Origin: Lycorma delicatula
Lineage: Eukaryota > Arthropoda > Insecta > Hemiptera > Fulgoridae
NCBI RefSeq assembly: GCF_047948215.1
Contig: NC_134456.1
Span: 203,124,034 to 203,188,033 of the forward strand
Direction of reading: 5' to 3'
Length of the DNA stretch: 64,000 nucleotides
The notes below the pieces were generated by a model. That model saw nothing but the letters and a program-made list of their open reading frames with translations, ran no database searches and was not told the origin of the DNA. How positions within the stretch are numbered: position 1 is the first letter of the stretch; each line of letters starts with the position of its first letter. Both the position numbers and the translations under genes were made by a program. This document shows, one piece after another, positions 12,541-60,610 of the stretch.

Positions 12541-12812
12541 TGAACCTAGTTACGTTCACAAAATGCTATGCTGATTGAGTTCATGATGCTACCTGAAAAT
12601 AAGAATGGTAGTTATAAAAAACCTAAGCCTGATAGAAGAATTCTGATATCATATTTGCAACCAGCATGAAAAATACTATAAGAATCCGTTATTCACTCTC
12701 ATTTAATAAAATCAGTGTAATTTTTATTATTAAAACTATTTTTAATTTTATTAACCATGGCCCATTGGTATTGATATATAATAGTTTCCACTTACCAACA
12801 TTCTTTAATAGT

Positions 12813-12855
12813 ATGTTCAAGCGCTTTCAGATTAGTAAACCATCCCCAGGAACAT
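12813..12855 (-). ncRNA. Hammerhead-ribozyme-like motif, left arm (degenerate core)
   Basis: Read on the minus strand from 12855: stem I strand ATGTTC, core CTGGGGA, stem II GGTTT-ACT-AATCT (one non-pairing position), GAAA, a minimal self-complementary stem III AGCGCT, an unpaired T at the expected cleavage position 12819, and the second stem I strand GAACAT. All parts are in the order of a type I hammerhead. The core has CTGGGGA instead of the required CTGANGA, so this arm is probably inactive. Stem I pairs C with G where the other arm pairs A with T. Confidence 0.6.
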
Positions 12856-13137
12856 TGATATGTTATAATTATTTACTTCACATATCATTAATTATACTAA
12901 CTTGAATTTTAAAAACAAAAATTATAAATATATTGATCATCTAAAGGTCAATGTTATTTGTCATGTCAGTATGACGGTCTCTACTTTTACGTTAGCAATT
13001 GAGAACTTTATACTGACATGATGAATAACATTGACACTATTTTACCTTTTGACGATCAATTGTTATATTTATAATTTTTGTTTTTAAAATTCAAGTTAGA
13101 ATAATTAATATGTGAAGTAAATAATTAGAACACATTA

Positions 13138-13180
13138 ATGTTACTGAGGATGGATTGCTAATCCGAAAGCGCTTTAACAT
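13138..13180 (+). ncRNA. Hammerhead ribozyme motif, right arm (intact core)
   Basis: On the plus strand: stem I strand ATGTTA (13138-13143), core CTGAGGA (13144-13150, fits CUGANGA), one linker base, stem II GGATT-GCT-AATCC (13152-13164, perfect five pairs), GAAA (13165-13168), stem III AGCGCT (13168-13173), T at the cleavage position 13174, and stem I strand TAACAT (13175-13180, six perfect pairs). Stem III is only three palindromic pairs with no loop. This is the minimal form reported for Penelope-like elements, thought to work as a dimer. Cleavage after U at position 17 is allowed but less favoured than after C. Activity is not shown. Confidence 0.7.
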
Positions 13181-13212
13181 ACTATTAAAGATTGTAAGTG
13201 GAAACTATTATC

Positions 13213-16200
13213 TAAATAAAACTATTCTTATTTTATGGTTATTACCATATAAATACATTTTGTTAGTTAAGTGCGTGTTTCTTTTCATATATGATCTATT
13301 GGTTTTTTTCGCATTTAGAATGATTGAACTCTTTGTCTTTCTCTGCATTTAATCATTTCAACAAAAAAAATCATTAAGTATGAAATTCATTTTAGTCAGA
13401 TTTGAAAAAAAAATCCAATTCTTATTTATATGTGGCCTCTGGAAAATTTTACGTCATCAGTATAAACCATGGTACAATTTGGGTGGGCCAGGCCTGATTT
13501 ATACAGTATTTCTAGGTGAAAACATGAAATAACAAGTGCAGTAATCGGATGTTAGAAATTAACAATATAAGAGTTTTTAAAAAATATACCAGTTTTAGAA
13601 AATGTATAAAAACTTTATTTTGTAACAATCTGATTTATTTGAAATTTGCTAAACCTTCAAAAATTCTTGATTGTAGGATATTTGATATAACCTTGATTCT
13701 CTCTTTTACTACTACATTTCTTCTACTACTATTGTTGAAGTACATTTATCACTTCCTTAAAATGTACTGAAGTGAATTTTAACTTCTATTATATGAAACA
13801 TAGTGTACAATAAAATTATAAGACTGGGAAAAAAATTAATCATGTCAAATAAAAAAATTGTTTTTTGTATTTATCTAAAGTGAAGGTAAGTTTTCTTAAT
13901 GTTAAACGGTCACCCAACTTTTGAATAGTAAATTGTGACAGCTGAAGTTGAATTTTTTACTTTGTTCTTGGAGGAACATGGATGCACTTTGTATAAAGAT
14001 AGTGTACACAACTAAAATTGGAAAAAGGAAAAATGATTCCTTGATGGCCTGTAGGTGCAACACAGAATTTTATAATTTTTGTTGCACTTTCAATATTTAA
14101 TAACTTATTACAAAATAATCATATAAAACTATTAGGCAATAAAATTTTTGTAATGCTCAATTCACAAAAAGTTCTATTCTGGTCAAAATGTTGTTTTTTT
14201 TTTGTGTACTTAATGTAAAGTTACTATATTGCAAACATTTTAAAAATTGCATGAATTTGAAAAAAATATTAAAGTATTTTGAAAAACACAATTGCCCTTG
14301 GTAAATTAAAACTAAATGTAACCACTTTGTATGAAAAACATTAAAACACATTTTTCACACCCTAAGACAACACATCACAAACATTGTGAATAAAAATTTT
14401 TTTTTCTATGAATTGATTCAATGCATTTGTTTATTTGTGAGGGGCTGGGTCTATTGTCAGCATATTATCGCATTTTTGTTTGCGTAATGCCTGGTGTATG
14501 GATATTCCTGTAAATTGTATGTCTGTGTAAATTATCACACTAGTTTTTTTGAGTGTAAGCTGATTACTAATAGTTTCAAACTCCAATAGTATTTTGTCAT
14601 TCAATAGGTCCTGCCATATTTGTTGTTCACTTCTGTACCTAGTTGTCGATTTTGTAGGTTATTTTTGTATGGGTAGTGGTTAAAAAGTGGAACTTCCAAG
14701 AATTGGCAGTATTTTACTTTCAAAATATTAATGTAATTTCATAAACAATATTAGAAATTAATTAAATATTTAAAAGAAAAAATTCTGTAATTCGTAAAAG
14801 CATAACATTGTTTACTCAACCACATGAACAGATTGAAGTTTGCATTAAATTCAGAGTGATTATTTCAAGTTGCATTTTTACCAATTATTGAGATGGTTAT
14901 ACTTTGTAGCTGCCAGTAATTGAAAAACGTAGGAATACATTATGTAACTACTACCCATTCAAAAGATAAATTAGGTAGTTACACTATGTGATTCCTGCTC
15001 CTCAAAGAGTTAACCCTCCTTACCTTGCAGAATCCTTATTAATCTAAGAGACCAAAATTTCTATGCAAGTATAAACACAATTTGTTGCTTGTGGCTTTTA
15101 ATTTAATGCATACTTGTACTTTTATTAATCTTATTAAATTGCCTTAGATACTGGACACAAATTTATTCTTAAATCAAGACTCTATGACTGTTGTTTCATT
15201 TATAGTAACATTCTGTTAGTAGTATGCTTTATTGAGGTAGTATACATCAAGGTATTTTAACTGAAAAAATGAATACAGATACTTTATAAGCAGAAAAAAA
15301 GCTTTTTTCTTCATTAAATTTTTATCACCCTTCCTCCCAACACTGATGCACGACTCCAATTGATCGTAAAGGAAGAATAAATCTGTTCAGTCCTGCAAAG
15401 GGCTTTTTTTAGACATTAAAGATATAGTGTACTATCTCCTCTTAAATTCAATAACACTAATATATTCTAGCAAAACTTTTTGCCAAATTTCTGAGCAAAG
15501 TAGGTCAATTTTAAAACCTGTTTTCATAAAGTTATTGATCGAACATACAAATTTCTCAGTTTCAAGAAACTAGTGAAACTTTCAGAGTTTCTTGGCAGCA
15601 ATTTCAATGAAGTTACAAATAGCACTGTTGTTAATGGTACCCATCTTAAAGATGTTAGGAAGATCTCTGTAAGTACATAATTTAATAATACATTAAATCT
15701 GTGTTGTGGGTTTGTAAATGTTTTACTGTACAAGTTCATTGAAATTTTTGTTTTAATGCAGAGTGTAACACACCCATATGTACTTTTTATAGTAGGACAA
15801 CATGCCCTGTAAAACACCTGATGACAAAAAACATATCACTAATTGAATATACTAATAAATTTAACAGACTGATGTACATTCACCCATAGATACAAGAACA
15901 ACAGAATCAAATTTTGCCAATTTCACGTAAAAATTAAAAGATTTCGCACAGTGTGAAATTTAGATACAAAGATAACTGACTGGGTATGTTATTTGATTGC
16001 ATTCCTAATGTTTAAGATGAGTGTTGCTGACAACCTGCAGCAGAATGTGCTACTAATTAGCTACAAAGTTCATTTTGAAGAAAAAGAACCTGAAAGGTGT
16101 CTTGAAACAGAGTTTAACATTGTAGCTGCTCAATGCTTTTTATAAATATTTGTAACATTATCAAGATTTATTTCCTGTACTTTTCTAAGCTTATTCTTGA

Positions 16201-17690: not shown

Positions 17691-18530
17691 ATGATCCTCG
17701 AAGAGTGGTCTATAGTGGCTGGTTTCCTTCGCGCCCTTGCAGTGTGTAGGTCTGCAGAGGGAGTTTAATCGAGGTACTCGATCGTGGTAGGATCCCGGGT
17801 GGCTAGGGTTGTGGCTTAGGCATTGGATTGGTTGGAGGTAGGCGCATTGGCATCGTACCACGGTTATATTGGTATTGTTTGTGATTCGCTTTGGGACTTC
17901 CGCTGGCTGGGGTGACCGTGCCTCCGAGTTATGTTAACACGTGTGACCGGGGGTGTGGCTTCCCTCCGCCGGTGGCGGTCCTGATCGTGACTTCGTAATA
18001 ACACGCGAGACACCATAATCGTACCGGGTGGTGGTGCGGGGTTTAAACTGGTCGACTTATTTGTAGGTCTGAATTTCTATTTTTGTATATTTTAACTGTT
18101 GCGTAAAACATAATTTTGATTGGTATGAGTGTAGGACTGATTTAACTTTAAATTCGTTCGTTGACTGAGGCATTCACAGTCATGAACGGTGTTGTCAAAT
18201 TTGTACTAGGCGCGGGGTTCGCGCTTCTGCAGTTTCGGTTAGTTAGTTGAGGGAATCATGTTAGCGTGGATGGTAAGATGTCCATTTGAGGCCTACATGA
18301 AGGCAAAATTTGATATGTATTTACTGATGCAAATGTCTGGCAAGGCATTTACATTGGTGGAATCCCGACTGAAACCTGGCTGATTACTCAGATGTAATCA
18401 GTTAGAGGGTCTCGTCTAAAGACAACCTCTGGTAAAACCCCTCAGGGCTTAGAACAGAAGGGGTGGTGTGGTGACCGGTAAGATCACAAGGTGGGTGTCT
18501 TCCCCCTATGGGGTTGGGATGACTAAAAAA

Positions 18531-19111
18531 GTATGAGTATGACTATTTTCTTTGAGGAACAATATTGAATCTCAGCATTTCATCTGAAACAGATTGGTTT
18601 CACTTTTTAATTTATGAAGAATTCTATAGTACCAGTGATGACTCTTTACCGCTTTACATTTCAAAGAGGACAATTATGAAGTCGTAACATAATGGACTAT
18701 TAAAAAGAAACCAAATAGGATATCTTCAACAGACAAGTACCACAACTACCACACTCTGAGTTTCTAAAAAATGTGTAATGAACAGTACTACAGAATTCTT
18801 GATTAAATATCTATATTAAAGGTAAAGTAAAAAATAAATACCTTTATTAAAGGAAATACCAGTATGAGGATGATTATTTTCTTTGAGCAGTAATATTGAA
18901 TCTCAGCCTTTCATCTGAAACAGACTGGTTTCACTTTTTAGTTTTATCAAGAGTTCTGTAGTACTACTAATTAAAAGTTTCCTATTAAGAATGTGGTAAG
19001 TTGTGAAAACTTGTCTGTTGAAGATATTCTGTCTGGTTTCTTTTTAAGAGTCCATTATGTTACTACTTCATAATTGTCCTGTTTGAAATGTAGAATGGTA
19101 GTCATCACTGG
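18531..19111. mobile_element. Foldback element with extra direct repeat
   Basis: The left arm (18631-18806) and right arm (18944-19111) are inverted copies about 85-90% alike by eye; for example, the left has ccagtgatgac at 18632 and the right ends gtcatcactgg at 19111. Both contain the block ggacaattatgaagt or its complement. In addition, an 80-bp segment at 18531-18612 recurs directly at 18862-18943 (shared ttgaatctcagc and tttcatctgaaacaga). The layout is A-B-A'-B(inverted). No coding frame. It starts at the 3' end of the LINE. Confidence 0.7.
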
Positions 19112-20979
19112 TCAATTAAGAGTTAAGAAACTTTTCTCCTCTGAAAATTTTAATCATAGCTATGAAATATTTTTCCTTGTGCTCCCATGTAGCTAATACT
19201 GTTTCATACTTTAATTTCATGTGCAGTATTCAGTTGCCAATACAAACACCAGTTTCTGATATAGTTTGTAATATTAATTCACTAATTAGAACAATCTGAT
19301 GTCACATGTAAGAAGACATTCTCAGCTGCCAAGCATGAGGTTCATTTTCACACAATTTGTTATTTCATCTGATTTATACTCTCTTGCCTGTCATTAACAG
19401 AAAATATTCTTTTACATTCACTTTGACATTATTTCATTTCTTTAATGTATTTTAGCATTTTGTTATGAGTTAACCAAATATAGAGGATTCATGTTTATGT
19501 ACATTAAAATATGTTCTAAGTATTTGAAATGGACTATATATGCTACTAGTAAAAAAAAAAGTTGACCAACCTACAGAAGATGTATTTGTAGTTATGTAAA
19601 TGATTTCTGAAAACCATAATATTTTTCCTATATTTATAGACTTAAAAAAATTCAGTACACCTTATTTTATTACATTTTTAGTTGCAATGTAAAACTAATG
19701 AAATCCAAAACACGGTAGTGTGAGTTTAATGAATTAATCTTTCAGCCTTTTGAAGAGAATGGGAATCAGTCTCTTAAGAATACTATAAGCATAAAAATTA
19801 TTGCTTCTAATTTTTTAATCTATTTAGATATGTAAATAAAATTAAAAAAATTGAGACAATTCAGTCTAATTATCAGCTGGCCCTATTAGCTAAAACTTAC
19901 TAAAAGTAAATATTTTCATTAAAAATGGAAGCTTGCAATGTACGAGTAAACACAGTGAAAACATGAAACTCAGAAATATGCAGTAATACCTGTTCAATAG
20001 TATTGCACAGTTTTTAAACTTGTAATGTACTATCAGCTACACTAGCTTTTTTGCCATTCATACACATGTACATTTATTTAAATGTACATCATTATATTTA
20101 ATTTCAATTTAAACATTAAATTTTATACTGCTCTAATTTTTAAGAAAACCATACTTAAAATAGCAAAATTATTGATTATTATATCAGGAAATATATTTAC
20201 CAAGTCAGGACATTGTAATAATGCATTAAGTAAAAATTTAAAAAAATGGTTGTAATTAAAATGATTTGTATTTATTTTTAATGATTTAACTTATACTTAC
20301 TTATGAAGTACTGTTCTTGAGATGAGAATATAATTCTAAATGTTCATCATACCTGTTTTATGTTTATGAGTGTTAAGTATACACACACAAAGCATGAACA
20401 ATATCAGTTGAGGTTTTAATTTAATTAATATCTTATGTAAATAAAGCAAAACATTTCTTGATTTTTCTGTTACCTTTCTGATTTATTTTTATTTTTATTT
20501 TAGGAAGAACCAGTCTAACAATCTTTTTGTGAGATTTATAATTGTTTAATTAAGATACCTATTGCTTGTTGCAGTTAAGTATATATTAAAAAATTAAGAT
20601 TTTAGTGACCATTTATATTTGTTTCCTATCTCTCAAAAATTAACATCCTTTTATGATTCATGATATTAATACAAGAGGTAGAAAAATAGATTGTGCAAAG
20701 ATATTTTTATCACTACCATCTCAGCTAGTGTAGGGCGGTATCCCTTGTTCCACTACTTATCCAGCAATGAAATGGTTAAACATACTCTGCTATTAATGAA
20801 GTAGTGTATTTAACAAGACTATGGTAAATAATTACAATAGCTCAGTGACTTATAACCACATTACATTTTGACTGACCAGACATAAAATAATTTGATGCAA
20901 GTCAAATAAGTAAAGTATATGGAGTGTATTAGAGACAAGCACAAAATGCTAATGTAAAAAATACATCATCATTTTAAGG
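19112..20979. other. Intergenic AT-rich DNA, nothing recognised
   Basis: No coding or repeat structure beyond short homopolymers and a small palindrome near 20065-20090. Confidence 0.4.
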
Positions 20980-22690
20980 TAGGCTTACCATATTTTTTTT
21001 TGTATCCAACCCAGGACATATTTTTGAAATTACTTAAAAGTCTTAACAGTTTTCTGAAACATTAATCTTAATTTATTCAGTTGTATTTTTCACTAGACAT
21101 GACTTTTTTTAGAAATGGTTTGTTGTTTTAATTACATCATAAAATTCACAACAAGAAAGTTCTGAATTAATTTTAACATTTAACAGATGTCTAACAACTG
21201 ATACTGAAAGTCTACCCCTTAATATCCCAGGCAAAGACATCGGAAACTCAACCATTTTAGAAATATTGAAACACGAAACAACAGTCTTTTGAGACACCTT
21301 AAAAATTGCTTTCCACTTCTCTTCAATAATATCTGGTACTTTTTCAGAACTTGAACCACAACCTACCCTTTGGTTTTGAATTACCTGGTTTAACAATGTA
21401 CGTTCATCAAATAGGTCATCAATTTTTATGGAAATTTTATAATTTCATCAACAACTTGTGCACTCTCTTCTAAATCATCCAGGCAATTTCAATTCGTAAA
21501 TTTATCCACTGAAACTAACCATCTTTATCAAAACTGGTTCTCCACAACTCAACAATTATTGGATACGAGAATTATAAAAATTGTCTATGCTTGAGAATAA
21601 TTTCTGTTCCTAAACATCATTATTTTCTTTTCGACTGAATAGCAATTCTTTGGCAGAAGGTGGTATAAATTTGTGGGTTTTTCTTTCCTGAAATTGACAA
21701 ATTAATTCAGAATATGTCTGAAATGCTTCTGTTCCTTCAGAACTACATTATTAAATAACTAGACTACCAAAAATTTCAAAACTAGTTCACTTTCTACATT
21801 TTCAATAAAATCAATTAATAATTTTGGGCATTTGTCACAAATTATGAAGTATGATTTTAGGCAATCAAAAATGGAAATAATTCTTTCCATTGCAGGTAAC
21901 AAACTAAGGTACCTTCTGCTGTTATGAGATAATACTTTTTTGCAATCTGTTTCCTCAAATTCACAGAACTCTTTTAATTTTCGTTACTCTTGCTATATAT
22001 AAGTGAAAATATTTATTCATTTTTATAACAATAACTTCTATATCCAGGGGTAGAGAATCACATGCTTTTTGTACTGAATTGTGTACAATGTGGGCTGAAC
22101 AACCAATTCCTAAAATGGTCTATCTAAATCATTTTGAACATTTCTGAACACATTTCATTCCCCTTTCTCTTCACACCACCAAAATTACTGTTAGTGTTAT
22201 CAGTAGTTTGACTAACCAACTTTTCTTCAAGTTTGTATTTTTTCATACTGCAAAAGAAACAGTCAAAATTTGAGCAGTTCACCTGACACTTCATCAAAAT
22301 TTAAAAGTTTAACTTGAATTCTTTCCTCCAGACTATATCTTAACAGTAATCGGAACAAGTTTTACTCACTTCTGTTTGAGCGATAGCTCAAACGATCGAT
22401 AGATCGTTACTGTTATATAATTAATGTTGTTCAAAGAACACAACACATTATCAAATAAAAATGGTGAAATAATGTTAACAATAATTGCCTCAGTTTTGGT
22501 TCTAGCAATGAAAATTTTGTGTCATATAACTTTTTAATCGGTTTAGATGTGCAATCTGATGTTTTGAAACTGAGTTTGTGTATAGCAGTGTGGCATGAAA
22601 ATGTAGCTTCTTTAGCAGCACACTCCACACACACAGCTAATGTTGTTTTAGACTTTCTACATGAACCTTTTAACGTAAATGTCATTTCAA
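20980..22690 (-). pseudogene. hAT-type transposase relic, copy 1
   Basis: The minus strand, with many frameshifts, encodes a hAT-superfamily transposase related to BED-finger proteins that recur in arthropod genomes. Segments in order from 22650 downward: TLAVCVECAAKEATFSCHTA, EPKLRQLLLTLF and its shifted equivalent, a SNFGGVKRKGNE segment, HCTQFSTKS, and near the C-terminus ILRGRLSVSVVRHLLNVKIN followed by SELSCCEFYDVI (21109-21240). The left end carries TAGGCTTACCATAT (20980-20993), matching the inverse of the right end of copy 2 (32411-32424), so it is taken as the terminal inverted repeat. The 5' part has lost the BED finger. About 93% alike with copy 2 over 22021-22625 by eye. Confidence 0.7.
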
Positions 22691-31554: not shown

Positions 31555-32424
31555 AACAATATAACAATAACTTCTCTGTCCAGGGGTAGAGAGTCACATG
31601 CTGTTTGTACTGAATTGTGTACAATGTGGGCTGAACAACCAGTTGCTAAAATAGATCTATCTAAATAACTTGGAACTTTTCTGAACACATTTTCATTCCC
31701 CTTTCTCTTCACACCACCAAAATTACTGTTAGTGTTATCAGCAGTTTGACAAACCAACTTTTCTTCAAGTTTGTATTTTTTCATACTGCAAAAGATACAG
31801 TCAAAATTTGAGCAGTTCACCTGACACTTCATCAAAATTTAAAAGTTTAACTTGAATTCTTTCCTCCAGACTATATTTTAACAGCAATCGGAACATGTTT
31901 TACTCACTTCTGTTTGAGCTATCCATTGTTACTGTTACATAATTAATGTTGTTCAAAGAACACAACACATTATCAAATAAAAATGGTGAAATAACATTAA
32001 CAATAATTGCTTCAGTTTTGGTTCTAGTAGATGAAAATTTTGTGTTATATAACTTTTTAACCAGTTTAGATGTGCAGTCTTGTGTTTTGAAACGAAGTTC
32101 ATGTATAGCAGTGTGGAATGAAAATGTAGCTTCTTTAGCAGCACACTCCAGATTACTATTGTTATTCCCATCTTTGGCTTTAAAAAAATCTCATATGTTT
32201 GCTGAAGCAGTATCATTAATAGCACTCCTATGTTTAGCTGTTTTCACATGGTCTTCAATATCACCCTTTCCTTCATGTACAACAGAAAATTCTCCAGTAC
32301 AATGTGCAATAAACATGTTCATTGTTACCGTCATTTCACAATTTCAGTCATAAAATTCTCAAACCCCAGACAGCACTTAAACACCAGGACTGTCTAGGCT
32401 AACCCCATACATATGGTAAGCCTA
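31555..32424 (-). pseudogene. hAT-type transposase relic, copy 2 (5' half with BED-like finger)
   Basis: The minus strand encodes, from about 32335: an N-terminal finger CTGEFSVVHEGKGDIEDHVK continuing to TAKHRSA (Cys and His ligands of a BED-type finger), then LECAAKEATFSFHTAIHELR, FKTQDCTSKLVKKLYNTKF, and after a frameshift MMKCQVNCSNFDCIFC, ADNTNSNFGGVKRKGNENVF and GCSAHIVHNSVQTACDSLPL (31560-31835). This is the same family as the copy at 20980-22690. The right end carries ATATGGTAAGCCTA (32411-32424), the inverted repeat partner of the other copy's left end. The 3' half, including the C-terminal dimerisation region, is missing. It lies in profilin intron 1, antisense to profilin. Confidence 0.75.
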
Positions 32425-39602: not shown

Positions 39603-40929
39603 TGATTCAAAGAAACGGGCAATTTTAAAAATTAAATAACGTTAATGAAAATTTTTTTTTAGAAAATGAATTTTATTTCATGTAATTGTACAAATGTTGC
39701 TATTTTAGGATACATACAGTATAGTTTATTTTTTAAAGATGACATCTTGCAGGTGACCTCCTCTTCTACATAAAGACTCACGAAGTCTCTTCGTTAAATT
39801 GTTCATGGTTTGACGTAACATCTCAACTGGAATTTCCGCAGATGCTTCTCGGATGTTTGCCTTCAGTTTTTCCGTTGTAGCAGGTGTACTGTGGAACACT
39901 TTGCTTTTAAGGTGACCCCACAAAAAGTAATCGCAAGATGAGAGATCAGGCGATCTGGGAGGCTATCTAATGTCACCATTTCGTGAAACGACACGTTGTC
40001 CAAACAATCGGCGTACAGCTGCCATCGATATTTGTGCAGTATGTGACGTTGCTCCGTCTTGTTGAAACCAGGCTGTGTTAAGAATCGGTGGAAATCTATT
40101 TTGTTGTTCAACAACAAAGGTTTCAAGCATGGCTACGTAACAGAGCCGACGTCACTGTAATCGCAAGACCGTTGTCATCCTCAAAAAAATAAGGGCCTAT
40201 AACACCGTAAGATGACATATCACACCACACTGTCACTTTCTGGCTGTGCAACGGACGCTGGTGTAGCTGCGTAGGAATTTCTTGTGCCCAGTATCTGAAA
40301 TTTTTCTTGTTATCCACTGAGGTGGAAATGCGCTTCGTCTGACATCCACAGTTCGTGAACAAACTCTTCGTTATCATATCTTCTGAAGCATTACATTACA
40401 GAATTATGCTCGCACAACTGCATCGCTTGGTTTCAGTTCCTGGACGATCTGCAACTTGTATGGATGGTATTGCAAGTCCTTCACTAACATTTTTCGAACA
40501 CTTGAATTATGCGATTGTAAAGATGCTGAGAGACGACGGATTGACCGATGTGGACTTAGTGTGACAGCATCTTGTAAAGCTTGAACATTCTGTGGTGTAC
40601 GGACGGTTCGCTCATGGCCTGGAGGTTTCTTTTTCATTGCCAAACCGGTTTCCTCAAAATTAGATATCCATGCTTTAATTGCACGTGCTGATGGAACACG
40701 GTCGTGCCGTCCCAGATTAAAATGACGGCGAAGTTCTCTACGCGCTCCCTCCACACTGTCATTGTTTTTGTAAAACGCTTTGATAGCAAATGCACGTTGC
40801 GCACCACTCCAAGGATCCATGACAACTAAATGGTAGGTTAGGTTAGAGAGGCTGGCGCCACTTATCAAGTGGTACCAATCGCCCACGGCTACTAACACAA
40901 CATTCAAAATTTCCCGTTTCTTTGAATCA
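39603..40929 (-). mobile_element. Complete mariner-like (DD34D group) element with terminal inverted repeats
   Basis: The left end TGATTCAAAGAAACGGG is followed by caatttt; the inverted right end reads TGATTCAAAGAAACGGG followed by aaatttt. The 24-bp terminal inverted repeats (39603-39626 and 40906-40929) therefore differ at one base. The element is 1327 bp, the usual size for a single-gene Tc1/mariner transposon, and contains one transposase frame between 40820 and 39726. The flanking TA duplication is not evident. It lies in profilin intron 1, antisense to profilin. Confidence 0.85.
39726..40820 (-). pseudogene. mariner-like transposase, frameshifted
   Basis: Begins MDPWSGAQRAFAIKAFYKNN (ATG at 40818-40820). 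It continues with an HTH region (VPSARAIKAWISNFEETGLA), the linker KKKPPGHERTVRTPQNV, a second HTH (HRSIRRLSASLQSHNSSVRK), and HPYKLQIVQELKPSD. A stop and frameshifts follow near 40404-40320. The catalytic part is still legible: WMSDEAHFHLSG (first Asp), RYWAQEIPTQLHQRPLHSQK, VTVWCDMSSYGVIGPYFFED, WFQQDGATSHTAQ (second Asp), and PPRSPDLSSCDYFLWGHLKS (third Asp). The C-terminus GGHLQDVIFKK ends at TAA 39726-39728. All three catalytic Asp survive in separate frames, about 365 codons overall. The upstream open frame to 41207 is not part of the protein. Confidence 0.85.
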
Positions 40930-43869
40930 CCCTTTACAATATAGGAGCTTAAAATGAAAAAAAATTCTTTAATTAAAATTAAAGATTTTTCCAAAATTGG
41001 TGGATGATAGAAAGATTCTGAGTTCATATTCATTTTCAGTATCAAAAAAACAGATTTTTTATTGTTTTTTAATGTTGGAATATTTTGTAAAATATCAGGG
41101 ATAATGTCTAAGACTAGACATACTCTTAAATATCCTGATATTCCCTCTGCCAGAAGACCAGTTGTCTCACAGTCCACACTTACCAATTTTAGTACCATCA
41201 AAAACATGGGAATTAGATGAAAATGAAGCTATTTATATTGAAAGTTGTACACTTTTATCAGGTGATAAACAAAGGAGAGACCTAGACTTTTTAAAAAATA
41301 CAAATACTGAACCATGCTTAATTAATTATCAGTATTAAATGATCTTGTTCCTCTTTCGTGATCTAAATTTAAAGTTCAAATCTAAACTACCTATTTGGAT
41401 AATATAATCCAAGTCTTGTTTAAGGAAAACATTTACAATTTTTGGTACAAATTGATATGGTCACATTTATATATTTAGGTTGTAGGTCCTAAATGGAAGA
41501 AACCTTTAAAGTCATAATGGGAAAGCCAAAAAACAAATTTTCTAAGGGAACTTCTGAAAAATATCTTGAAACTATTTTGCAGGCCCAGTTGTAAGTTTTA
41601 TAATACAAGATTATTTTACAATTCTTTCTCCATAGTATTGTGTTTAGTTAGCTTTATTTACTGGATTGAGAAATAGGCACCATTGTATTCTAAGTTAGTT
41701 TGGCAAAGAAGTACATCAGAAACGTTTTTGAGCATAGTTATATAAGAAACATGAATTTGTATTTAAGGGAGAGGGATAGTAAAATTCATTCTTCCCACTA
41801 AATAACCAAGAGAAAAAAATTTTAATTAAGTAAAAAAGATAATAAATATGAATGCATAGATTTTTATTAATTTAAGAGTAATCGGAAATAAAATGTAAGT
41901 GGTTGTTTGCTTGTTAATCATTACTTTTTTCTACTATTTGTACATTTAATTTTATTTAATTAAAGCACTTATCATAAATTCATTATATTTTGTTTGATAT
42001 TAATTAAAATAAAATATGAAAGTTCAAATTTTAACCTCTATTTGAATAATGTATTAGTATCTCATTTAAGGAAAAATGTACCATTTTTTGTGCAAAAGTG
42101 GATTGGCTACAATCCATTAATATTATTATGGAGGAAATTCTTATATATAAAATAAAAAAGCATAAAATGAAATAAAAAATTGTGATTCTAATAAAAAGAA
42201 GATTATCTTAAAAGAAGTTGTATTTTATTAGTAAACATTGTAAACATATTTAGATGACTTAAATGAAAGTAAAGATCATTGTAGAGACCTAGAGAGAATG
42301 AAGTGCAGGTTCCTGGGTGAAAGATGTATAGTTATTAGAAATTTTTTTTATAGATTATAGATGTATTGTAAACTGAAATTTAACATCGTTATTAATTGTA
42401 AACATTCTTTGTTTTTAAAAATTACGTAAAATTTGTTTGTTAAATAAATGTATAGTGCAGCAGCAGGCTGTTCTTAAAACTTTCATTGAAGTTAATTAAC
42501 TTTTGTAACGGATTACTCCTTAAGTAAGCTGCCTTCAATGTCTATTATTTTACTTCTTAATACTCATATAAGTTAAAATTTATTTTGATTTTTTAAAGTA
42601 GATTTGTTACTGAATTGTGATTATCGGTTGTGTGTATTCATCCACTTAATTTATTAATTTTTATTATTTTCTCGCAGTCCAAGCCATAAAGTAAATTGTC
42701 AAATTGCTGCCTATTGTCTTGTTTTTGGTGATGTTAGCCTGTTGGACCTTATGTTGGTTATTTTGGGAGGGATGTAACAATGCCATTGGTTATTACACCA
42801 TTTATGTTATTGTGATTTTTTTTTTGTTAAGAGGAATTTTTAAAAATTCATTTTAGTTGATGTATACATTGAACTAAATAAACAAAATTCTGATATCTGA
42901 AAACAGTCCTTATGTGTCAATATCTGTTCCTACTGTGAATATGTGATGTGCTTATAGAATAAAATAAGATTCCAGTCTTAGGAAAAAAATAGATTAAAAA
43001 AAATAAACATGATGAAAATATTTATCGCTATCATAAGGAAAAATTCAGGATCAACAGTTGAGCAAGTTATGATTTTTAATCCATTTCTTCACTCATAATG
43101 AAAGTGGTAATTTTGGATATTTATGTTTTCTTCCTTCCAGGCACCATTTCCTTCAACACTGACCTCTGTTGATAATTTTAAGTACTTTTGTTTTCAGCAA
43201 GTCACCTAATGTTAAAGCATGAAACATGAATCACTTAAAAATTGGTTGTATAATGGTTTTTTCTTAAAATCTTTTCTAAAGTGATAAAATTACGTCTTTT
43301 GGTTTGTTTACTATTTTCATTGCCAAAAAATTTATATTTTCATTAAAATTTATAAATTCATTAAAAAAATATTTATTTTTTCTGATGGTTCCATAGCACC
43401 TTGATGTTTCTAGCTTTAATAACCTGAAAATTGAAGGTAAAATACAGACAACCGAAGTCATATTCAATGAGTAGATTCCCATACATTATCAAAGTTAAGA
43501 ATATTCTACACACTTCACTCCATGCTGTTGACATTTACTAATGGTTAAAAATTATATTATAGATAATATCCAGAAAAAAGGAAATTTTGGAGATTTTTTG
43601 ACAAAAGATAGAAACAGAAACATAAAAATATGAATTTCTCCTTTTGTACAACAATAAAAATGTTTATGGAAATTAATAAAATTCATAAACATTTCTAAAA
43701 GATTGACTCTAGCATGAAGTAGAAAGTTTTATAATTTTATTTAAGTTTGGCTTCTAAATTTAATTAACCTATATAACATCTTGTTAGGAAGTTCGAATTT
43801 TAATATAAAAATTAACTTGATCATGATTATAGGTGTCGAGTTTTGCCCTAAATCATTTAAACAATTGCA

Positions 43870-57949: not shown

Positions 57950-59100
57950 CTGAACATGGTCCCTAAATGGGAATCTTTTAAGTGTGAAAGAGAAGTTCAG
58001 CTTAATAAAAGACATTGAAAACAGGTTGAAAAGTAGACGTGGCAATAAAGTACATATTTTCAATCAGTATGGTACCAAAAATGTTGAACCATTATGATTT
58101 GAGTTATTAAAGCCTTTTAAAGTGTAGAAGGCGATTGGAAATTATTTAAATCCTTAAAATTTGACACGATCAATGAAGCAGTATTGAAATGTGTAAAAAT
58201 GATACGAAACAAGAATATGCCTGCGGCTGGGCTGCTCATTAAGGATAAAGCGACTGAATATACTGTAAATTTGGGAATTTCCAACTTCCAAGCTAGCTCT
58301 GGGTATCTCAGTAAATTCAAAAAGGAACACGGCATTCAAGAAAATGTAATATCAGATGAAAGTGCTTTTGTTTTGGGTATGCAATGCTCTCAACGGTGAA
58401 ACACATTCTGAAAACAGTTTTAAAAGTATATGACAGCGTGTTTCATGGAAGAAACAGGGTTTCTTCCATGTAAAAACCAGGGGTTTTTAAGTGTGCTCAT
58501 TAAAACTCTTGCTTTCAAAGACAAAAAATGTTTTGGAGGAAAGCATAGTAAGGACGAATCATGGCTGTTATTTGTATAAACATGACCAGTAAGGAGAAAT
58601 TAAAAACTCCTTGTGAAGGAAAAGTAAACAGTGTGCATTGTTTCAAAGACATGAATTCACTTGAAGTTGACTGTGACTTTTAACAAAAAATCATCTTGGC
58701 TGTTCGGAGAAATTGATAAATGAATGATCAAACAAAATGTGCTTCTTTTTGTGCTCAATAGCTTGGCTCATCCTAGTTCAGTTGAATGAAAATTGACTAA
58801 TGTTAAGCTTGTTTTCTTCTCTCCTAATACAACACCAAATTACAACCTGTGGACCAAGGGGTAATTAAAAATTTTCAAGTAGATGAATCTAGCTTGAATC
58901 TAGATGAATCTAGCTTTTTTTTTTATAGAAGCTGGTTTTGTAGAAAAGATTTCCTAAGATAAAGGGTAAACAGATACCAAAAATACAAAAGAAACATGAA
59001 AACAACTCATTTCATTAGGACAAATAAATGACTGTTTTGAATTAGTGCAAATTTTACATGTGAAACAGAACTTGATTGTGACTGATTACCCCACTGATCT
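57950..59100 (+). pseudogene. Tigger transposase relic (CENP-B/TIGD-like)
   Basis: With frameshifts: LLSVKEKFSLIKDIENRLKS (first CENP-B-type HTH, about 57975-58035), AVLKCVKMIRNKNMPAAGLL continuing IKDKATE and LGISNFQASSGYLSKFKKEH (second HTH, 58170-58330), FKDKKCFGGKHSKDESW, MTSKEKLKTPCEGKV, CFKDMNSLEVDCDF, and QNVLLFVLNSLAHPSSVE continuing to TNVKLVFFSPNTT. The second catalytic Asp, expected in the V-D-N-x-x-A-H-P motif, is replaced by Leu (VLNSLAHP). The acidic tail occurs near 59135-59180 (DNCDNEDELIEKPP). The ORF at 58184-58399 is the longest intact piece. Confidence 0.8.
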
Positions 59101-59437: not shown

Positions 59438-60610
59438 ACAGAGATGTATACCCATTTTGGAATAAACACGACATAGGTAAATTTTTACTAAACTTTATTA
59501 TGTGGCTAGAACATGTGGAGAAACAGATGCCATTTATGTTAGGTAGAAAAAATTACATTTGGAAAGTGATGACCATCTTCTCTGATTCATGTTTCAAGTC
59601 GAGAAATGGAGCTGACCCTGTTCATTGTCTCCTGCATGATCTGTACCTGTCTTCAGTCGCTGTAATATATGGGGTTTCTTGATATACACTTGCTCCTTTT
59701 AAGTTCTCCCACAGGAAGAAGTCGCACATACTCTGGTCGGGAGATCGAGGGGGCCAAGGAACATCTCCGAACCTGGAAATCACATGACCAGGAAACAATT
59801 GTTGCATTGAATGAGTGGCAGTGTGTGCTGTTGCCACATCTTGTTGGAACCACACTTTGGGACCCATGTCCAAGAGCTGTAATGCTGGCTGTATAAAGGT
59901 GGTAATCATGTTCGTGTACCAATGAGAATTCACAGTCACCGCTACACCTTCCTTTTCAAAAAAGTAGAGGCCAATAACATAATGCCTAGATATCGTGTAC
60001 CATACTGTCACAAGGAACAAATGCAGAGGTCATTCATACACTTGTTTTGGGTTTTTTTGATTACCAGTACTTACATTTTGCTGGTTGTCGTACCAGTTAT
60101 GGAAATGCGCCTCATTGCAACAAAATCTTTCCGCTGTTCATAATTTCTTGGAGTAATTGCTGCTTGCAGATCATCTTGTATGGATGAAATTTAGGATTGG
60201 TTTTCAAAATTATATTTACAGATTCCCTTCCCAATTGTAACGCTATTGCGTGGCACCTTGCCGAACGTCGGAAGACTGTGGAGAGAACTGCTGCTCTCAC
60301 TCCATACGTGCTTTTCACCATACGTTCAACTCCTGGTGGTGTTTTGGAAATGTTTCAATATGGTTTGCCAGTTTGGGCCTGCTCTGTGTCAGCCGACATT
60401 GAAATGACAACGGAATGACCTCTGAGCTGTCACAACTGAATCACTGCCTCTCGCATATGCATCGTACGTGAAAATGCAATGGTTCTGGCTACTCAAACAT
60501 GGCAACTGAAATAACGGCATTAGTTCACATACATGTAACTACAAGCAAATTGCAGGTTGTAGTAATAGTAACAGTGTTCAGTTCATTACAAAATGGGTAC
60601 ACATCTCTGT
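59438..60610 (-). mobile_element. mariner-like element nested in the Tigger
   Basis: The left end ACAGAGATGTATACCCATTT and the inverted right end ACAGAGATGTGTACCCATTT form 26-bp terminal inverted repeats (59438-59463 and 60585-60610) with two mismatches. Size 1173 bp. TA follows the right end (60611 onward as ac after GT-A); on the left the dinucleotide is TG, so the duplication may have mutated. Its position inside the Tigger's 3' region shows that it inserted later. Confidence 0.85.
59490..60420 (-). pseudogene. mariner-like transposase relic (nested element)
   Basis: The N-terminal half is damaged: MSADTEQAQTGKPY, MVKSTYGVRAAVLSTVFRRS, LGRESVNIILKTNPKFHPYK. The catalytic half is clearer: YVIGLYFFEKEGVAVTVNSH (59950-59990), LLDMGPKVWFQQDVATAHTA (second catalytic Asp), HVISRFGDVPWPPRSPDQSM followed by CDFFLWENLKG (third Asp). 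The ORF at 59622-60020 covers this part. The C-terminus is decayed and no first-Asp motif (SDEAHFH) could be read. It belongs to the same broad DD34D group as 39603-40929, but the terminal repeats differ. Confidence 0.8.

What the first reader, a model, noticed from the sequence alone, without database searches (positions are those of the whole stretch)
12813..13180. Paired hammerhead-ribozyme motifs with a compensatory base-pair change
Seen: both arms of the palindrome hold, in hammerhead order, stem I, CUGANGA-type core, stem II, GAAA, a three-pair palindromic stem III and a UH cleavage position. The right copy (13138-13180, +) has a perfect core and perfect stems. The left copy (12813-12855, -) has a damaged core, but its stem I pair changes from A-T to C-G, so pairing is kept although the bases changed. 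Known: minimal hammerheads with tiny stem III occur in Penelope-like retroelement terminal repeats. Inference: this is a Penelope-derived remnant, and the right copy could still self-cleave.
Basis: partly seen in the sequence, partly recalled or inferred. Interest (0 to 1): 0.85.

Follow-up and report, generated by a model that had tools for sequence, protein, structure and literature searches.

The report
Penelope-derived inverted repeats carrying hammerhead ribozymes
This is a gene-less remnant of a Penelope-type jumping gene, inserted as two mirror-image copies that each carry a small self-cutting RNA motif, and comparing 40 copies suggests how such mirror-image insertions form.

Summary
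The hammerhead motif is inherited, not a chance match. The window element (12741-13216, minus strand, 10-bp target duplication) is one copy of a repeat family in a 2.2-Gb genome. The consensus of 80 arms from 40 copies is a complete minimal type I hammerhead. Each copy is two inverted arms; 38 of 40 have a ~40-nt tail on one side. The tail, variable target duplications (clear in about a third of copies) and head-to-head pseudo-LTRs fit Penelope-like elements (PLEs). A model built from these motifs hits 15 of 30 GIY-YIG (PLE endonuclease) loci of the same genome at E<=0.01 (4 supplied training sequences); in 100,783 control bases it hits only the two window arms, also training. Corrections: the left arm is the sense arm; A-U in stem I is the derived state; the compensatory change is weak evidence (chance P about 0.08); cleavage in cis is unlikely (zero-loop stem III, long duplex). 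New: the palindrome centre differs in nearly every copy, as if two cDNAs of one RNA were joined afresh at each insertion. No PLE gene joined to this pseudo-LTR was found.

The parts
12731..12740 (.). target site duplication, left copy (TAAAACTATT)
   Evidence: identical to 13217-13226
12741..13216 (-). whole inserted element (PLE-derived inverted pLTR pair plus tail), 5' end at 13216, tail at 12741
   Evidence: boundaries from the family copies and the target duplication
12741..12777 (-). 3' tail (TATATCAATACCAATGGGCCATGGTTAATAAAATTAAA type)
   Evidence: blast-detected in 38 of 40 copies
12778..12981 (-). sense pLTR arm, the arm that runs into the tail (inner limit approximate)
   Evidence: arm alignments
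12813..12855 (-). hammerhead motif of the sense arm, damaged (A6 to G, one stem II pair lost); predicted cut 12819/12818
   Evidence: model R1 55.2 bits, E 3.8e-11 (a training sequence of the model)
12982..12996 (.). centre of the palindrome (approximate), copy-specific junction of the two arms
   Evidence: the window copy's own centre scored too low to be counted
12997..13216 (+). inverted pLTR arm without tail (inner limit approximate)
13138..13180 (+). hammerhead motif of the inverted arm, intact core and stems; predicted cut 13174/13175
   Evidence: model R1 59.9 bits, E 2.3e-12 (a training sequence of the model)
13217..13226 (.). target site duplication, right copy (TAAAACTATT)

Best explanation
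The palindrome is a retro-inserted, ORF-less, head-to-head pair of pseudo-LTRs of a Penelope-like element, with the PLE 'tail' on one side and a minimal type I hammerhead in each arm. Likely working (inferred): an RNA whose 5' end lies at the inner end of the arm (GAUAACAAUUGAG...) was copied by a PLE reverse transcriptase from internal start sites about 77 and 110-120 nt after the A9-U-G10.1 triplet. One cDNA was primed from each strand of a staggered cut in AT-rich DNA. Both cDNAs ran to about the RNA 5' end and were joined there with filler, giving a palindrome flanked by a short target duplication. In an intact tandem PLE the ribozyme would act as a dimer through the AGCGCU palindrome. In this solo palindrome it is probably inert. 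Shown: motif, family, tail, target duplications in part of the copies, variable centres, matching ribozymes at GIY-YIG loci. Inferred: enzymes, priming, RNA 5' end, cleavage.
For: Repeat family: 40 places scored of 1670 first-look candidates. Consensus of 80 arms is a complete hammerhead; core intact in 57 of 80; mean divergence core 0.041, stems 0.078, two flanks 0.083 and 0.063. Tail in 38 of 40. Target duplications: 13 of 38 own flank pairs score >=10 (cut-off chosen by me) against 1.6% of mispaired flanks; 2 of the 13 are TA simple repeats; window 10 bp. GIY-YIG: 31 matches over cut-off, 150 of 857 candidates scored; model R1 hits 15 of 30 fetched loci at E<=0.01, 11 of them not used in training, and 15 have none; 100,783 control bases give only the window's own two arms at that level. 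In 12 of the 15 the ribozyme lies downstream of and on the strand of GIY-YIG, 242-435 nt away in 11 (by hand). At one locus an RT-like frame lies upstream of GIY-YIG. Stem covariation. Spacing: cut at +25, arm end +77, tail end by +120, against cut 26 bp, RT start 111-118 and tail 30-40 bp in the lizard PLE PAc (PMC11167929, main text). Centres: 31 copies with a gap have 31 different fillers and 3 copies overlap; at least one arm ends within 3 nt of one common point in 29 of 34.
Against: No PLE ORF was found joined to this very pLTR: blastn of the element consensus against the 30 GIY-YIG loci gave nothing at E<=0.01. RT evidence is weak and from one locus: NCBIfam RT models 0.00098 and 0.0038, PDB RT 0.068, Pfam RVT_1 0.12 behind a glycosyl hydrolase at 0.048; a protein search found no relative. 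A target duplication is clear in about a third of copies. Changes at stem pairs within the family look mostly like neutral decay; of 9 double changes 6 keep pairing. Arms of one copy are only slightly closer to each other than to other copies (0.121 against 0.131; own partner nearest in 3 of 40), although 33 shared derived substitutions exceed all 1000 shuffles (mean 14.3, max 29). Palindrome centres can also be altered after insertion, which could add to their variety (not tested). No RNA data.
Confidence: 0.86

Rival explanations
1. Foldback MITE of a Tc1/mariner-type transposon with TA target duplications; the hammerhead likeness is accidental.
For: Long inverted arms, TA beside the symmetrical part (read), transposase remnants in the window.
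Against: The family extends past the TA on one side as a conserved tail; the duplications seen are about 8-13 bp and variable; 15 of 30 GIY-YIG loci carry a matching motif.
Confidence: 0.03
2. Self-priming: a cDNA made on an antisense template snaps back and primes its own second strand, giving the head-to-head palindrome, as proposed for rotifer Penelope.
For: Proposed in PMC3846280 for inverted pLTR junctions (passages read).
Against: Snap-back predicts a loop made of template sequence; here both arms reach the same end within 3 nt in 12 of 34 copies, with different filler between them.
Confidence: 0.3
3. A fixed palindromic non-autonomous element (SINE-like, retrozyme-like) that is itself transcribed and copied whole, its centre being altered later.
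For: Similar outer ends, derived variants shared by both arms, many copies. Palindrome centres are prone to deletion after insertion (general knowledge).
Against: Copies should then share centres at least in part; 31 fillers in 31 gapped copies are all different, while the arms stay about 87-88% alike.
Confidence: 0.18
4. Chance hammerhead-like sequence in an AT-rich repeat.
Against: Random rate 93 in 906 Mb; the family consensus has the complete site; similar motifs at GIY-YIG loci, 4 seen against 0.13 expected by the relaxed descriptor.
Confidence: 0.02

Closest known systems
Penelope-like elements (Penelope/Poseidon clade; PAc of Anolis, Pen2a of Adineta vaga)
   Same: pLTRs of about 200 bp, adjacent inverted pLTR, 30-40 bp tail, target duplications of 8-10 bp where present (PMC3846280 passages); minimal hammerhead at the ORF start with the cut 26 bp in (PMC11167929 main text)
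   Different: no ORF; the whole insert is the inverted pLTR pair, in many copies, with a copy-specific centre
Metazoan retrozymes (non-LTR, type I hammerhead)
   Same: short, AT-rich, non-coding, hammerhead-bearing (PMC7229834 passages); may rely on PLEs (PMC8969392 passages)
   Different: retrozymes are direct tandem repeats, in invertebrates with a stable helix III; this is a single inverted pair with a zero-loop stem III
Small PLE hammerheads that act as dimers (Lunse et al. 2017; paper not held, known only from citing papers)
   Same: nearly absent, palindromic stem III
   Different: no tandem partner in cis in this element

Membership tests
Hammerhead ribozyme, minimal type I (PLE form) | CUGANGA and GAAA core, stems I and II, A15.1-U16.1, H17 | tested here: met
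   right arm and family consensus; the left window arm has A6 to G
Hammerhead ribozyme, minimal type I (PLE form) | compensatory changes in the stems across separate families | tested here: met
   four sequences of A2 were chosen by a pairing descriptor and A3 was fitted to the model, so the counts lean towards the structure
Hammerhead ribozyme, minimal type I (PLE form) | Rfam covariance-model hit | tested here: not met
   copies L016 and L030 with the exact consensus motif give no hammerhead hit either, so not diagnostic
Hammerhead ribozyme, minimal type I (PLE form) | self-cleavage | not testable with these tools
   needs an RNA assay
Penelope-like element (autonomous) | RT plus GIY-YIG ORF | tested here: not met
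   the element is 476 bp; its longest stop-to-stop frames are under 90 aa and match no Pfam family where tested. GIY-YIG frames occur elsewhere in the genome. Filed as PLE-derived, not as a PLE
PLE-derived pLTR insertion | tail on one side, inverted pLTRs, short variable target duplication | tested here: met
   duplication clear in 13 of 38
PLE-derived pLTR insertion | same pLTR joined to a PLE ORF in the genome | tested here: inconclusive
   no match in 30 GIY-YIG loci; of 1670 candidate places only 40 were scored
Metazoan retrozyme | tandem direct repeats | tested here: not met
   single inverted pair in the window and the fetched copies with about 150 bp of flank
TA-duplicating MITE | TA duplication at the end of symmetric TIRs | tested here: not met

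The most novel reading that the evidence does not exclude
Palindromic solo pLTR insertions are 'strong-stop' products of PLE insertion: both strands of one cut prime reverse transcription of the 5' part of the same RNA, the tail side from an outer start site and the other side from an inner one, and the two cDNAs are joined at the RNA 5' end by end joining. This would explain inverted pLTRs and the one-sided tail together, and would make every such palindrome a footprint of the RNA 5' end.
Probability: 0.42. Interest if true: 0.66.

Novelty: new variant of a known kind. Interest (0 to 1): 0.52.

Why it matters
How PLEs come to have inverted pLTRs and a one-sided tail is not settled in what I read: the 2013 rotifer paper proposed self-priming (passages) and the 2024 lizard paper showed that both target strands are cut and extended from internal start sites (main text). 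A family of ORF-less palindromes with similar outer ends and copy-specific centres lets these models be told apart from sequence. The alignment of 80 arms shows no common break at the predicted ribozyme cut site (one arm, L025_R, loses similarity inside the motif), which agrees with the lizard finding that unprocessed RNA is the main template.

Tried and rejected
TA-duplicating MITE (my first reading from the window alone) was dropped after the family alignment. Rfam searches found no hammerhead and were shown to be blind to this form. Scans of viral contigs and prokaryote genomes for pieces of the element gave four phage-type contigs matching a 17-mer, or nothing; phage records gave nothing. 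Covariation within the family was too weak to use by itself. The first alignment of motifs used wrong coordinates for L016 and was replaced. Pfam on 20 window ORFs found only DUF4817, a sub-threshold HTH_32 and a Tc5 transposase domain. A protein search with the RT-like frame found no relatives, nor did a viral-contig search with the window's transposase-like frame. Rows dropped before counts: 2 of 40 copies without a blast-detected tail were left out of the full alignment (L035, L045); 4 of 38 copies were left out of the centre count for a low arm score (window copy, L033, L038, L044). Arm ends are approximate: in a few copies (for example L022, L037, L039) the filler contains arm-like letters, so an indel ended the alignment early. 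On checking, the odds of the novel reading were lowered from 0.45 to 0.42, because I had not weighed later changes at palindrome centres.

Full report
What is in the window. The region 12775-13214 is an inverted repeat. The right arm holds a hammerhead-like site with intact core and stems and the left arm a damaged one. A broad minimal descriptor finds one site in the window and 93 in 906 Mb of order-2 random sequence; with stem I of at least 6 and a three-pair stem III it finds 2. The two arms differ at 6 of 43 sites in the motif against 13 of the other 154 aligned sites of the arm (19 substitutions in 197), so the motif is not better kept than its surroundings. The compensatory change has a chance probability of 0.08.

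The family. A search with the element scored 40 places out of 1670 first-look candidates. I fetched the 39 others and aligned 80 arms. The arm consensus is AUGUUC CUGAGGA U GGAUU ACU AAUCC GAA AGCGCU C GAACAU, a complete minimal type I hammerhead with C17. The core is intact in 57 of 80 arms; mean divergence is 0.041 at core sites, 0.078 in stems, and 0.083 and 0.063 in two flanks. The extra U is in 78 of 80. At the innermost stem I pair the consensus is C-G in 55 of 80; the window's right arm is the only arm with A-U there.

Outer ends. One side of the elements runs on into a conserved tail, ATATATCAATACCAACGGGCCATGATTAATAAAATTAA, detected in 38 of 40 copies; the other side stops. Flanking duplications are of variable length: 13 of 38 copies score 10 or more against 1.6% of mispaired flanks, two of the 13 being TA simple repeats; the cut-off was mine, and 25 copies show no clear duplication. 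The window copy has TAAAACTATT at 12731-12740 and 13217-13226. The element is therefore 12741-13216 on the minus strand. This is a retro-type insertion, not a TA-duplicating MITE.

Comparison with Penelope. In rotifer Penelope a typical pLTR is 218 bp, an inverted pLTR completes the insert, a 31-bp tail is optionally present on one inverted pLTR, and the duplication is 9 bp; some copies lack one (PMC3846280, passages read). [quoted passage not shown] Counting from the A9-U-G10.1 triplet, here the cut is at +25, the arm ends at +77, and the tail ends by +120, the last bases of that count possibly belonging to the target. The triplet is not a working start here: it is followed by GAT TAC TAA.

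PLEs of the same genome. GIY-YIG (PF01541) gives 31 matches over the curated cut-off, 150 of 857 candidates having been scored; 30 loci were given. My relaxed descriptor found a hammerhead in 4 of the 30 where 0.13 are expected; 0.0007 are expected with CUGANGAUG and a 6-nt stem III, which all 4 have. Four sequences from these loci, two window arms and one consensus-like copy made a covariance model. It hits 16 places in 15 of 30 loci at E<=0.01, 11 of these loci new and 15 loci without such a hit; in 100,783 control bases (window and four viral contigs) it hits only the window's two arms, which are training sequences. E-values of this model are rough. The best new form, in four loci, ends GAAAGCGCUU, like the window motif. 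Several of the loci are related copies, so they are not 15 independent cases. In 12 of 15 loci the ribozyme is downstream of and on the same strand as GIY-YIG, 242-435 nt away in 11 and 904 in L063; in L060, L066 and L078 it is on the other strand (by hand; that the loci are not turned round was checked for L071 against L083 only). In L083 an RT-like frame precedes GIY-YIG, and the hammerhead follows about 440 nt after it; the RT matches are weak, and in Pfam a glycosyl hydrolase model ranks above RVT_1. Stem pairs covary across these forms: 9 of 12 pairs with changes on both sides in A2 and 8 of 12 in A3, slid controls at most 3; A2 was partly selected by pairing and A3 fitted to the model.

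The centre. Arms are alike up to about GATAACAATTGAG on each side, but what lies between differs: the central segment is 34-78 nt long in 38 copies. Of 34 copies that could be scored, 31 have a filler and all 31 are different, and 3 have overlapping ends; both arms end within 3 nt of the common point in 12 and at least one in 29. These ends are approximate, because indels can stop the alignment early. Arms of one copy share 33 derived substitutions against a mean of 14.3 and a maximum of 29 in 1000 shuffles, yet are only a little closer to each other overall than to other copies (0.121 against 0.131). I read this as two cDNAs of one RNA, or of closely related RNAs, joined near the RNA 5' end at each insertion (inference). 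Later deletions at an unstable palindrome centre could contribute and were not separated. PAc extends both target strands, with no difference in start site between them; here the two sides would use different start sites, which that paper does not show.

Working of the ribozyme. In an RNA of the whole element the arms pair (-219.4 kcal/mol) against -7.5 for the right motif with short flanks, and stem III cannot close fully in cis. I expect no cleavage from this copy in its own context; this is a prediction. That PLE hammerheads cut as dimers with palindromic stem III is taken from reviews (PMC6466107, PMC7761336, passages). That an extra base after A9 is tolerated is recalled from work on a viroid hammerhead; I saw only its title in a reference list.

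Limits. The parent PLE of this pLTR was not found, the genome-wide count did not complete, and there is no RNA evidence here. None of the listings and passages that I saw in the searches describes an ORF-less inverted pLTR family; they cover an open-licence library only, and I read few of the listed papers.

Noticed in passing
window 40404-41207 (-) and 59622-60029 (-): Frames that look like Tc1/mariner transposase remnants by eye; the first matches DUF4817 at 7.6e-13, the second matched no Pfam family.
   Followed up: partly
window 58121-58396 (+): Tc5-type transposase DNA-binding domain, 3.5e-09.
   Followed up: no
window 22024-22627 and 31560-32150: Two 91% identical repeats of about 600 bp in the window, with short minus-strand frames that look hAT-like by eye; two such frames matched no Pfam family.
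   Followed up: no
window 18530-19112: Nested direct and inverted repeats of about 100-180 bp at 81-88% identity, in the most GC-rich 4-kb bin of the window.
   Followed up: no
L084 (whole locus): A GIY-YIG/hammerhead element in long inverted repeats lies among frames with PCNPSPCGPNAQCR-type repeats, EGF-like by recall, perhaps an intron of a large host gene.
   Followed up: no
L067 2902-2942 (-): Second, different hammerhead match upstream of the first one in the same GIY-YIG locus (UUACAACUGAAGAUG...), as a tandem or nested PLE could give.
   Followed up: no
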